A DNA stretch of 64,000 bases. Origin: Coralliovum pocilloporae (GTDB taxonomy: Bacteria; Pseudomonadota; Alphaproteobacteria; Rhizobiales; Cohaesibacteraceae). Location: positions 1,709,501 through 1,773,500 of the forward strand of contig NZ_CP132542.1 of assembly GCF_030845175.1 (NCBI RefSeq), in the 5' to 3' direction. The position numbers and the translations under genes were made by a program. Under the pieces are notes generated by a model, which had not been told where the DNA came from, did not search any database, and was given only the letters and a program-made list of their open reading frames with translations. Of this stretch, positions 5,773 to 37,411 are shown piece after piece. Positions within the stretch are counted from its first letter, which is position 1. Every line of letters starts with the position of its first letter.

Positions 5773-5798
5773 AACCGTGAGTCAGGGAGGAGCAGTAG

Positions 5799-7781
5799 AT
5801 GGAAGGTGCGCGTTCACCGGCCAGCGATGCGCTGGATACATTTCCGAAACTGTTGATCAGGAATGCGCGTATTCGCGGCTCCAGGCCAGCGGTTCGCGAG
5901 AAATATCTCGGGATCTGGCAGACCTGGACCTGGGGAGAGGTTCTGGAGGAGGTCAGAATCTATTCCCTCGGTCTGAAACAGCTTGGTGTTCAGTCTGGCG
6001 AGAAGGTGGCCATTGTCGGCTCCAACCGGCCGCGATTGTACTGGACCTTCGCAGCCGTTCAGACTCTTGGTGCTGTTCCGGTTCCTGTCTATGCTGATTC
6101 GGTTGCTGAAGAGATGGCCTATGTGCTGGAGCACGCCGAGGCTCGTATAGCCATTGTCGAAAATCAGGAACAGACTGACAAGGTTCAGTCTATTGCGGAA
6201 ACTGTGACCTGCCTCGAGCAGGTTGTCTATGATGATCCGCGTGGTTTGCGAGATTATGACCATTCTGCCCTTCACAGCATTGACCAGGTTCAGGAGCTGG
6301 GTCGTGCCGCAATGGCCGAGGACACCTCTGCGGTTGAGAACTGGCTGGACGGGATCAACAGAGCCTGTGGTTCCGACCTGAGCGTGATGCTGTATACCTC
6401 CGGCACAACAGGGCGTCCCAAGGGTGTGATGCTGTCCTATGACAATCTGCTGATTTCGGCCCGCAATGCCTGTGAAATGGACCAGATGACAGATGCGGAT
6501 GAGGCAGTAGCCTATCTGCCTCTTGCCTGGGTGGGAGATCACGTTTTCTCCTATGGGCAGTCCTACTGGTCCGGATTCTGCGTTGCCTGTCCGGAAAGTG
6601 CGGAAACCCTGATGCACGATCTGAGGGAGATCGGCCCCAGCTTCTTCTTTGCACCGCCGCGTACCTTTGAGACCCTGCTCACCAATATTATGATCCGCAT
6701 GGAGGATGCAGGTCGGCTGAAAAAGGCCATGTTTGACACCTTCCTGAAGGTGGCGGACCGGGTTGGCGAGGATATCCTCAACGGCAAGCCGACAGGACTT
6801 GCGGACCGCCTGCTTTACAAGCTCGGTGACATGCTGGTCTATGGACCACTTAAGGATGCTCTTGGGTTCTCGAAAGTACGGATAGGCTATACGGCCGGTG
6901 AAGCAATCGGGCCGGAGATTTTCCGCTTTTACCGCTCTCTTGGCATCAATCTCAAACAGCTTTACGGCCAGACGGAAGCCTCCGTTTACGTAACCGTGCA
7001 GCCTGATGGCGAGATTTTCTCAGATACAGTGGGTAAGCCCGCCCAGGACGTTGAGATCCGCATTGCGGATAATGGCGAGGTGCACTATCGCAGCCCCGGG
7101 GTCTTTGTCGGTTATTTCAAGAATGATGACGCCACACGGGATACCAAGACCGAAGACGGCTGGGTGCTGACGGGTGATGCCGGTTTCATCGACAATCGCG
7201 GCCACCTGAAGATTATCGATCGGGCCAAGGATGTGGGCAAGTTCAATGACGGGGCCATGTTCGCGCCCAAATATGTCGAGAACAAACTGAAGTTCTTCCC
7301 CAATGTGAAAGAAGTGGTGGCGTTTGGCAGCGACCGCGATTTCTGTACCTGTTTTGTCAATATCGACCTGACCGCAGTGGGGAACTGGGCAGAGCGGAAC
7401 AACATCCCCTATGCGTCCTATCAGGAACTGGCGGCCCACCCGGATGTCTACAAGACTATTGAGGAGCATGTGGCCCAGGTGAATGCGGATCTGGCCAGAG
7501 AACCGATGATGGCACAGAGCCAGATTCACCGGTTCCTCGTTCTGCATAAGGAGCTTGATGCGGATGATGGTGAGCTGACCCGGACCCAGAAGGTGCGCCG
7601 CAAGTTCATTACGGAACGTTATGGTGAGCTGATTGAAGCGCTCTATGACGGGTCTGCTGAGAAGTATATTTCAACAGAGGTGACCTTTGAGGACGGACGC
7701 AAAGGGCAATTGGCCGCCACCGTTGAAATCCGGGATGTAACCACCTTCCCTGTAGAGGCCGGGCAGGAGGCTGCGGAATGA
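5799..7781 (+). CDS. AMP-forming acyl-CoA synthetase (long-chain/aryl acid type)
   Basis: A 660-residue member of the adenylate-forming family that activates a carboxylic acid to its CoA thioester via an acyl-adenylate. Motifs: P-loop YTSGTTGRPKGVM at about residue 198, YGQTEASVY at about 388 and the hinge region GDAGFIDNRGHLKIIDRAKD at about 460-480. Length and C-terminus resemble very-long-chain or FadD15-like synthetases. It opens an operon with a complete Liv-type ABC importer and overlaps livG by four bases, so its substrate is likely what that importer brings in. Strong GGGAGGAG ribosome site. The substrate cannot be told from sequence; fatty and aryl acids are both possible. Confidence 0.9.
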   Translation: MEGARSPASDALDTFPKLLIRNARIRGSRPAVREKYLGIWQTWTWGEVLEEVRIYSLGLKQLGVQSGEKVAIVGSNRPRLYWTFAAVQTLGAVPVPVYADSVAEEMAYVLEHAEARIAIVENQEQTDKVQSIAETVTCLEQVVYDDPRGLRDYDHSALHSIDQVQELGRAAMAEDTSAVENWLDGINRACGSDLSVMLYTSGTTGRPKGVMLSYDNLLISARNACEMDQMTDADEAVAYLPLAWVGDHVFSYGQSYWSGFCVACPESAETLMHDLREIGPSFFFAPPRTFETLLTNIMIRMEDAGRLKKAMFDTFLKVADRVGEDILNGKPTGLADRLLYKLGDMLVYGPLKDALGFSKVRIGYTAGEAIGPEIFRFYRSLGINLKQLYGQTEASVYVTVQPDGEIFSDTVGKPAQDVEIRIADNGEVHYRSPGVFVGYFKNDDATRDTKTEDGWVLTGDAGFIDNRGHLKIIDRAKDVGKFNDGAMFAPKYVENKLKFFPNVKEVVAFGSDRDFCTCFVNIDLTAVGNWAERNNIPYASYQELAAHPDVYKTIEEHVAQVNADLAREPMMAQSQIHRFLVLHKELDADDGELTRTQKVRRKFITERYGELIEALYDGSAEKYISTEVTFEDGRKGQLAATVEIRDVTTFPVEAGQEAAE

Positions 7782-35264: not shown

Positions 35265-35331
35265 AGCACCAGATCTTTAACCTGAATCGGCGACGGTGCT
35301 TTAAGAGTTTGTTTCTACAGCGTGCTTCAGT
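35262..35331. repeat. Intergenic hairpin repeat, modules C and partial B (copy 3)
   Basis: Module C (35262-35303) is a hairpin bounded by TAAAGCACC/GGTGCTTTA with core TCTTTAACCTGAAT. It is followed by inverted AAGAGTTTGTTTCT, the far end of module B, fused directly to ACAGCGTGCTTC, the near end of B, as if the middle of B were lost. It lies between the hydrolase and hisN stops and may terminate both. Confidence 0.75.
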
Positions 35332-36127
35332 CTTCAGCCAGCGTGAGCAAGGGGAGTACTGCTGCATGAAGAGCAGGATCTCCTGCCGCTACAATGCGCC
35401 CACCGTTTTCCGGAGCATCCCCGGTCCATGTGGTGACAATGCCGCCAGCCCCTTCGATGATTGGAATAAGAGCTGCAATGTCATAGGCCTTGAGGTCAGC
35501 CTCAATGACCAGATCCACATGTCCTGATGCCAGCATGGCATAGGCATAGCAGTCGGTGCCGAACCGTGTCATGCGTGCTTGCTGCGCAACCGCCTCGAAG
35601 GTAGCCTTCTCGGCAGGGGTGAACATATCGGTTGACGTGCAGAAGAGGGCGGCCTGATCCAGAGACGAGCAGGATCGGGTTGAAAGCTGCCGCGCCCCAT
35701 CCGGTCCTTTATACCAGGCTGATGACCGGTCACCGAAAAACCGTTCGCCGGTAAAGCCCTGGCTCATCATGCCTGATGCAGCCCGTCCATTCTCATAGCG
35801 TCCGATCAATGTCCCCCAGACCGGAACACCGCTGATGAAGGCTCTTGTTCCGTCAATCGGGTCCAGCACCCACTGGGTTGCAGCATCTGTATTGCTGCGG
35901 CCGAATTCCTCACCGATGATGCCATGGTCGGGATGGATATCCTGGATCAGCGCCCGCATGGCCTGCTCGGCTGCCCGGTCCGCTTCTGTCACAGGGTCAA
36001 AACCACCGCTGTCCTTGTTGTCGATGGCCAGCACCTGGCGAAAGCTGGGCCTGATTGCATCCCAGGCTGTATCGGCAAGCTGGTGGAAAAGGGCAAAACT
36101 GTCTTGGGAGACCGGATCGGCAGCCAT
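35327..36127 (-). CDS. hisN: Histidinol-phosphatase, inositol-monophosphatase family
   Basis: A 266-residue Mg-dependent phosphatase. Metal-binding pieces are GIIGEEFGRS, WVLDPIDGTRAFISGVPVWG and, towards the C-terminus, IEADLKAYDIAALIPIIEGA. GTRAFISGVPVWGTLIG is characteristic of the HisN type that dephosphorylates histidinol phosphate, rather than of SuhB-type inositol phosphatases. The ATG at 36127 is preferred to 36181; the upstream ribosome site is weak. The region upstream carries a repeat and the sRNA. Confidence 0.88.
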   Translation of the reverse strand: MAADPVSQDSFALFHQLADTAWDAIRPSFRQVLAIDNKDSGGFDPVTEADRAAEQAMRALIQDIHPDHGIIGEEFGRSNTDAATQWVLDPIDGTRAFISGVPVWGTLIGRYENGRAASGMMSQGFTGERFFGDRSSAWYKGPDGARQLSTRSCSSLDQAALFCTSTDMFTPAEKATFEAVAQQARMTRFGTDCYAYAMLASGHVDLVIEADLKAYDIAALIPIIEGAGGIVTTWTGDAPENGGRIVAAGDPALHAAVLPLLTLAED

Positions 36128-36198
36128 GGTGTTTCGACTTCTGTCTGGAAGAAAAGATGTGGTGCCTGCAACGCATAGCATTCACCCGGCATGATGGC

Positions 36199-36305: not shown

Positions 36306-36377
36306 AAACAAGCTGGTCAGCAGAGAAATATACGGGTGCCATTCTCCGATCCGGAGTTCTGATTCGAACCGATCGTC

Positions 36378-36405
36378 TTGAATAGTTTGGAATCGTTCTT
36401 ATATG
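36378..36405 (+). promoter_or_regulatory. Sigma-70-type promoter of the sRNA
   Basis: TTGAAT (36378-36383), a 16-base spacer and TATATG (36400-36405). The start of transcription would be near 36412, immediately before the first hairpin of the sRNA. Confidence 0.6.
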
Positions 36406-36411
36406 CAGGTT

Positions 36412-36498
36412 ATGACGGTCGGATGGCCGTCTGCCCAGTATCTGGGCGTTTCCTCCCTAGACTTTAAGGCCGTTTGCTTTGCAAGCGGCCATTTTTTT
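36412..36498 (+). ncRNA. mmgR: Trans-acting sRNA of the MmgR / alpha-r8 (suhB) family
   Basis: About 87 nt. Hairpin 1 is GACGGT/GCCGTC (36414-36431). Hairpin 2 is GCCCAG-TAT-CTGGGC (36433-36447). The unpaired stretch GTTTCCTCCCTAGAC (36447-36461) contains the TTTCCTCCCT core that I recall as the invariant part of the alphaproteobacterial alpha-r8/MmgR family, able to pair with ribosome sites. The terminator GGCCGTTTGC-TTT-GCAAGCGGCC ends in seven Ts (36468-36498). A promoter precedes it. In this family the sRNA typically lies beside an N-formylglutamate amidohydrolase and often near an inositol-monophosphatase-type gene, as here. In Sinorhizobium MmgR limits polyhydroxybutyrate accumulation; the targets here are unknown. 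Confidence 0.85.
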
Positions 36499-36520
36499 GT
36501 TGGAACCTATTCAGGTAGAT

Positions 36521-37411
36521 CTACTCAGCGGCCATGGATATCCGGCGTTCAAGCAAAGCCGATTCCGTGATGATATCAGCCGTCAGGATCTCAAGATCAC
36601 GAGCCAGTTTGTCTGCGCCGGAATGGAGCTCGAGGGTCTGTTCATCCATATAGAGTGCGCGATTGATCTCAAGCTGCAACGCGTGAAGACCGGCGGCCGG
36701 TTTGCCGTAATGTTCGGTGATGAAACCACCGGCATAGGGCTTGTTGAGTGTTGTTTTGTAGCCTAGGTCTGCGAGGCTTTCGAGAGCGACCTCGGTCAAA
36801 AGGGACGCACAGCTCCGCCCGAACCGGTTGCCGATAATGATGTCAGGCCGTCCCTGCATGGGTTCGCCGCGGATTTTCGAAGGCATGGAATGGCAGTCAA
36901 TCAGGACTGCAATGCCGAACCGGGCGAAAGTATCGGTCATCAGAACCCGGAGCCGGTCATGATAAGGACGATAGATGGTCTCGATCCGGTGCTGGGCATC
37001 TGAAAATGACAGGGGGCGCCGGTAAATCTCGCACCGATCCGACACGATGCGTGGAATGGTGCCAAGCCCGCTCGCGACCCGTGGAGACCGCTTGTTGACA
37101 TAGGGCGGCAGAGGGTCTGAGAACATGCGTGGGTCAAGCTCATAAGGCTCTCTGTTCAGGTCCACATAAGCACGTGGAAACCGGGCGCTGATGAGAGGGG
37201 AACCCTGCTCTGTCACATGGCGAAACAGGTGGTTAACATGCGCATCTTCCGAGCTTCGCAGGGTCATCGGATCAAGGCGCGATTGCTCAATAAATGTGTC
37301 GGGATAATGTGTGCCGCTGTGCGGGGAGCCGAAAATAACCGGATTGGTCTGCTCGCCTGGCTCCGATAGGGAAAAGGCAGGAACCGGTGTCAGGGGAATT
37401 GGATTAGCCAT
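36521..37411 (-). CDS. N-formylglutamate amidohydrolase
   Basis: A 296-residue zinc hydrolase of the FGase family, which removes formate from N-formyl-glutamate or similar N-acyl amino acids. Motifs: FGSPHSGTHYPDTFIEQS near the N-terminus, AYVDLNREPYELDPRMFSD, the zinc site IDCHSMPSKIRG and TLNKPYAGGFITEHYGKPAA. No histidine-utilisation genes are nearby, so a hut role is not supported. Adjacency to cpdR and tRNA-Val is a recurring alphaproteobacterial arrangement. The ATG at 37411 has only a weak ribosome site. Confidence 0.9.
   Translation of the reverse strand: MANPIPLTPVPAFSLSEPGEQTNPVIFGSPHSGTHYPDTFIEQSRLDPMTLRSSEDAHVNHLFRHVTEQGSPLISARFPRAYVDLNREPYELDPRMFSDPLPPYVNKRSPRVASGLGTIPRIVSDRCEIYRRPLSFSDAQHRIETIYRPYHDRLRVLMTDTFARFGIAVLIDCHSMPSKIRGEPMQGRPDIIIGNRFGRSCASLLTEVALESLADLGYKTTLNKPYAGGFITEHYGKPAAGLHALQLEINRALYMDEQTLELHSGADKLARDLEILTADIITESALLERRISMAAE

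What the first reader, a model, noticed from the sequence alone, without database searches (positions are those of the whole stretch)
36378..36498. Complete sRNA gene matching the MmgR / alpha-r8 family, in conserved context
Promoter, two hairpins, an unpaired TTTCCTCCCT core and a strong terminator form an intact trans-acting sRNA gene between an inositol-monophosphatase-family gene and an N-formylglutamate amidohydrolase gene, as remembered for this family. Its C-rich core could pair with ribosome sites of many mRNAs. In this organism its targets, perhaps storage-polymer or nitrogen genes, are open.
Basis: partly seen in the sequence, partly recalled or inferred. Interest (0 to 1): 0.6.

Follow-up and report, generated by a model that had tools for sequence, protein, structure and literature searches.

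The report
A conserved αR8 (MmgR-type) small RNA
This is an intact, ordinary copy of a small regulatory RNA (αR8/MmgR) that most related bacteria carry beside the same gene; it probably blocks ribosome binding on nutrient-uptake mRNAs, and this copy appears to have lost the storage-polymer switch found in most relatives' promoters.

Summary
Window 36426-36505(+) matches Rfam RF00519 (MmgR/αR8) over the full model at 59.6 bits (cut-off 41, E 9e-10). It is the only copy in the 3.9-Mb genome. The predicted ~86-nt RNA (36412-36497) has two hairpins, an unpaired UUUCCUCCCU core and a strong terminator (fold z = -5.2). It lies between an inositol-monophosphatase gene and a convergent N-formylglutamate amidohydrolase gene; 76 of 80 named amidohydrolase loci have an αR8 beside that gene. 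αR8 RNAs are known (MmgR in S. meliloti, SisA-D in Caulobacter), so this is a new member of a known kind.

Three things I did not find described. (1) The PhaR operator present in 56/77 relatives' αR8 promoters is absent here, although PhaR and PhaR sites at all phasin loci are present: the storage-polymer input seems lost. (2) Core-complementary ribosome sites (GGGAGGA) are concentrated at periplasmic solute-binding protein genes (8 of 9 DctP genes) and include lsrB; phasins are not predicted targets. (3) All 18 sister-genus genomes changed the core's ninth base (CCUCCC to CCUCCU).

Targets are predictions. Related sRNAs (AbcR, NfeR1) could explain the same sites, and sister-genus transporter genes keep GGGAGG despite the core change.

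The parts
36377..36404 (+). Putative promoter: -35 CTTGAA (36377-36382), 16-nt spacer, -10 TTATAT (36399-36404); no PhaR operator in it
   Evidence: Direct reading; aligned -35 in sister-genus loci; not called by the consensus scan; PhaR motif absent
36412..36497 (+). Predicted sRNA transcript, about 86 nt (start inferred, ±2 nt)
   Evidence: RF00519 match; fold z -5.2
36414..36431 (+). 5' hairpin (7-bp stem), mostly upstream of the Rfam match
   Evidence: Fold; the 26 nt before hairpin 2 fold more stably than their shuffles in 115 of 123 loci, with 88 distinct arm sequences
36432..36448 (+). Second hairpin; CCCAG/CUGGG here, longer than the usual CCC/GGG stem
36449..36458 (+). Unpaired 10-mer core UUUCCUCCCU (pairing seed)
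   Evidence: the αR8 10-mer in PMC12559287
36468..36498 (+). Rho-independent terminator: 10-bp stem (36468-36490), A, T7
36521..37411 (-). N-formylglutamate amidohydrolase (FGase) gene, convergent neighbour
   Evidence: PF05013, 1.4e-75; same tail-to-tail layout in relatives
35327..36181 (-). Inositol-monophosphatase-family gene, divergent neighbour
   Evidence: PF00459, 1.9e-45; present near 71/80 named FGase loci but none of 18 sister-genus loci

Best explanation
36412-36497(+) is a vertically inherited, single-copy αR8-family trans-acting sRNA gene (RF00519; orthologue of S. meliloti mmgR and Caulobacter sisA). A sigma-70-type promoter makes an ~86-nt RNA with two 5' hairpins, an exposed UUUCCUCCCU core and a terminator with a U-tail for Hfq. 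With Hfq, the core pairs with GGGAGGA-type Shine-Dalgarno sites and blocks translation of many mRNAs, chiefly periplasmic solute-binding proteins of TRAP/ABC transporters and catabolic enzymes, and possibly lsrB. The PhaR operator that makes αR8 respond to polyhydroxybutyrate in relatives has been lost, so here the RNA is probably no longer repressed by PhaR. Shown here by computation: identity, structure, copy number, context, operator absence, site distribution. Inferred: expression, Hfq binding, repression, loss of PhaR control.
For: RF00519 match, single copy, 56 of 61 genomes with a match, 51 over the cut-off; fold z -5.2; αR8 at 76/80 named FGase loci in the same layout; hfq present. SisA represses targets by direct pairing of the same 10-mer upstream of the start codon, with compensatory mutations (PMC12559287). 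Of 6 other perfect AGGGAGGAAA sites genome-wide, 4 lie just before a start codon. GGGAGGA plus ATG: 120 sites against 9 for the reversed pattern; 15 of 64 filtered genes are solute-binding proteins against 1 of 23 in two control ribosome-site sets (Fisher 0.035); 8 of 9 DctP genes carry GGGAGGA. PhaR motif in 56/77 named loci against 3% of shuffles, absent here, though PhaR and phasin operators are present.
Against: No expression or binding data. The consensus scan does not recognise the promoter. GGGAGG sites can equally be read by AbcR/NfeR1-type sRNAs with CCUCCC motifs (PMC8844928, PMC10746234), whose presence here I could not test. Sister-genus solute-binding genes keep GGGAGGAA although their αR8 core reads CCUCCU, so that ribosome-site preference is not strictly kept by αR8. 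The enrichment rests on small sets and on controls chosen by me; in the control sets only some proteins were scanned with Pfam and the rest were judged by eye.
Confidence: 0.8

Rival explanations
1. It is a real αR8 sRNA, but its targets are storage-polymer genes (phasins), as first guessed from MmgR; the transporter sites belong to AbcR/NfeR1-type sRNAs.
For: MmgR loss raises PHB in S. meliloti (PMC7143759); AbcR and NfeR1 repress solute-binding protein mRNAs through CCUCCC motifs; sister-genus genes keep GGGAGG despite an altered αR8 core.
Against: Phasin leaders pair no better than shuffles; the PhaR operator is absent; SisA, with the same core, represses transport and metabolic genes.
Confidence: 0.15
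2. The element is a terminator or 3' processing product of the FGase or phosphatase transcripts, not an independent sRNA gene.
For: It abuts the convergent FGase gene; the consensus scan finds no promoter.
Against: Both neighbours are on the opposite strand, so neither is transcribed through it in the sense direction; the 5' part, core and upstream -35 are conserved where neighbours differ; αR8 RNAs are expressed in two genera.
Confidence: 0.03
3. A decayed, unexpressed αR8 copy.
For: The promoter departs from relatives and lacks the PhaR operator; the score is lower than in many order-level relatives.
Against: The core is perfect, all hairpins and the terminator are intact, hairpin 2 is longer than usual, and it is the only copy in the genome.
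Confidence: 0.02

Closest known systems
MmgR (αr8, RF00519) of Sinorhizobium meliloti
   Same: Model match, 10-mer core, 5' hairpins plus terminator, similar length (77 nt there, about 86 nt here); the FGase neighbour, checked here in S. medicae (L057)
   Different: MmgR has a PhaR/AniA site just before its start, shown by EMSA (PMC12542648); this copy has none. MmgR is tied to PHB; phasins are not predicted targets here
SisA-D (αR8) of Caulobacter crescentus
   Same: Same core; SisA is also next to an FGase gene; the anti-ribosome-site mechanism is proven there
   Different: Four copies and a sponge RNA (CrfA) in Caulobacter. One copy here; neither of the two perfect core complements outside ribosome sites lies in a non-coding stretch. 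A partial-match sponge is not excluded
AbcR1/2 (αr15) and NfeR1 (αr14)
   Same: CCUCCC-type anti-ribosome-site motifs that repress solute-binding protein mRNAs
   Different: Different RNA families by sequence and structure; RF00519 is the family matched here. Likely overlapping targets

Membership tests
αR8 / MmgR (RF00519) | Covariance-model score above the gathering score | tested here: met
   59.6 against 41 bits, full length
αR8 / MmgR (RF00519) | Single-stranded UUUCCUCCCU core between a hairpin and the terminator | tested here: met
   36449-36458 unpaired in the minimum-energy fold
αR8 / MmgR (RF00519) | Rho-independent terminator | tested here: met
αR8 / MmgR (RF00519) | Gene next to an N-formylglutamate amidohydrolase gene | tested here: met
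   PF05013 at 36521-37411; 76/80 relatives
αR8 / MmgR (RF00519) | Expression as an ~80-nt RNA and Hfq binding | not testable with these tools
   hfq gene present; no RNA data
MmgR-type PhaR (AniA) regulation | PhaR palindrome YGCRNYGCR in the promoter | tested here: not met
   No match in 130 nt upstream; best PWM score no better than own shuffles
MmgR-type storage-polymer function | Control of PHB accumulation and phasins | tested here: inconclusive
   No phasin leader pairing; phenotype not testable
SisA-CrfA sponge system | A second RNA complementary to the core that titrates it | tested here: inconclusive
   No non-coding perfect complement; partial complements not searched

The most novel reading that the evidence does not exclude
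In this lineage αR8 has been rewired: it lost the PHB-sensing PhaR operator and works as a storage-independent brake on a broad solute-binding-protein regulon, sharing GGGAGGA-tagged ribosome sites with AbcR/NfeR1-type RNAs and directly repressing lsrB, whose product activates those RNAs in S. meliloti; in the sister genus the core itself changed.
Probability: 0.25. Interest if true: 0.5.

Novelty: new member of a known kind. Interest (0 to 1): 0.33.

Why it matters
Direct targets of αR8 were unknown outside Caulobacter in the papers read. A single-copy genome whose core complements concentrate at solute-binding protein genes, with a promoter that naturally lacks the PhaR site, offers a clean comparison for separating the storage-polymer input from the uptake output of this widespread RNA.

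Tried and rejected
Phasins as targets: rejected for pairing through the core. Sponge RNA with a perfect core complement: the two sites outside ribosome sites lie inside a coding sequence and antisense to a nuoH-like gene. AbcR next to lsrB in this genome: no Rfam match in 3 kb at each of two overlapping loci. The PhaR-like TGCAACGCA at 36167: at the rate seen across the window (23 in 64 kb) easily chance, and without AT-rich arms. My first 5'-hairpin count used unequal rules for real and shuffled sequences and is replaced. Two MmgR papers (10.1099/mic.0.000586 and PMC5370414) are not held.

Full report
What is there. A cmscan of the window gives two hits: a tRNA, and RF00519 (suhB, now 'Makes More Granules Regulator RNA, mmgR') at 36426-36505(+), 59.6 bits against a gathering score of 41, covering the whole model. 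The match sits between genes of the inositol-monophosphatase family (PF00459) and the N-formylglutamate amidohydrolase family (PF05013), both on the minus strand. The RNA is therefore divergent from the first and convergent with the second. The predicted transcript 36412-36497 folds into two hairpins, a 19-nt unpaired stretch with TTTCCTCCCT, and a terminator, z -5.2. The promoter call is plausible but is inferred by position, because the consensus scan did not find it.

Distribution. The genome (3.92 Mb, one contig) has one copy. Of 61 genomes searched (this one and 60 relatives), 56 have a match and 51 exceed the cut-off. A model built from 36 sequences finds αR8 at 76 of 80 named FGase loci, on the opposite strand just beyond the FGase stop. 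The phosphatase neighbour is nearly as common (71/80), but is missing at all 18 sister-genus loci. The 26 nt upstream of hairpin 2 fold more stably than shuffles in 115 of 123 loci (mean -7.5 against -3.3 kcal/mol), so a 5' hairpin is a family feature although only its end falls within the Rfam model.

Prior knowledge. αR8 RNAs, their FGase linkage, the 10-mer and an anti-Shine-Dalgarno mechanism with compensatory mutations are described for Caulobacter SisA (PMC12559287). MmgR in S. meliloti is Hfq-dependent, NtrC-activated, AniA/PhaR-repressed and limits PHB granules, with no direct target known in the review read (PMC7143759). PhaR binds the mmgR promoter at CAATTGTGCACCGCAGCATTA, 13 nt before the start (PMC12542648). 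The present gene is thus a new member of a known family.

Input. The PhaR core YGCRNYGCR occurs upstream of 56 of 77 named αR8 hits against 3% of shuffles, mostly at the same place between -35 and start. The window's promoter has none. With a weight matrix from ten published sites its best score is at the middle of its own shuffles. The same genome encodes PhaR and has strong sites at its three phasin loci (21-29 bits). Loss of PhaR control is the simplest reading. Most of the Brucella/Ochrobactrum loci and about half of the sister genus also lack a clear site, so the loss has probably happened more than once.

Output. Perfect complements of the 10-mer occur at six other places in the genome. 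Four are directly before start codons: a family-5 solute-binding protein, a LysR regulator, a sugar-binding protein and a pyruvate-dehydrogenase-type E1 subunit. The LysR gene follows a thioredoxin-reductase-like gene, which from my own knowledge is the setting of lsrB; the name lsrB here rests on that and was not tested further. LsrB activates AbcR1 and NfeR1 in S. meliloti (PMC8844928, PMC10746234). GGGAGGA followed by ATG occurs 120 times against 9 for the reversed pattern. Of 64 genes that pass a simple start filter, 15 are solute-binding proteins; others include four acyl-CoA-synthetase-type enzymes, two acyl-CoA dehydrogenases and two enoyl-CoA hydratases. In control sets with other good ribosome sites (AAGGAGAA and AGGAGGAA) 1 of 23 is a solute-binding protein; Fisher p 0.035, or 0.016 for the stricter 8-mer set, 5 of 13. 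Eight of nine DctP genes have GGGAGGA before the start. The three phasin leaders show no such pairing.

Caveats. AbcR and NfeR1 carry CUCCUCCC-type motifs and hit the same class of mRNA, and I could not test for them genome-wide. In the sister genus the core is CCUCCU in all 18 genomes, yet solute-binding genes there still use GGGAGGAA. A G-U pair may suffice, or other RNAs may keep that preference. The regulon claim is therefore a prediction at moderate confidence, while the identity of the gene is near certain.

Noticed in passing
L107, L111-L127 (sister genus g3): All 18 sister-genus αR8 genes have core TTTCCTCCTT or TTTCCTCCTA instead of TTTCCTCCCT, an otherwise almost invariant 10-mer.
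   Followed up: partly
L008-L010, L016, L020, L025, L031, L033, L037, L046, L048, L069 (Brucella/Ochrobactrum group, named or inferred): αR8 promoters of this group mostly lack the PhaR motif; an independent loss of storage-polymer input is possible.
   Followed up: partly
L141, minus strand, just before the start at 1503 (genome 653462-653480, -): The presumed lsrB mRNA (LysR gene after a thioredoxin-reductase-like gene) has a perfect 10-mer complement of the αR8 core as its ribosome site; a possible link between αR8 and the AbcR/NfeR1 circuit.
   Followed up: partly
window 5785-5801 (+): GGGAGGA ribosome site before an AMP-binding (acyl-CoA synthetase type) gene, predicted pairing -22.1 kcal/mol with the αR8 linker.
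   Followed up: no
L136-L138 (genome about 233 kb and 2.50 Mb): All three phasin loci carry near-perfect PhaR palindromes, the third as an inverted pair.
   Followed up: partly
L077 5086-5163 and 5734-5812; genomes G020, G037, G044, G058: Two αR8 copies lie close together at one locus.
   Followed up: no
L013, L027, L067, L079: FGase loci without a detected αR8 beside the gene; whether it moved or was lost is unknown.
   Followed up: no
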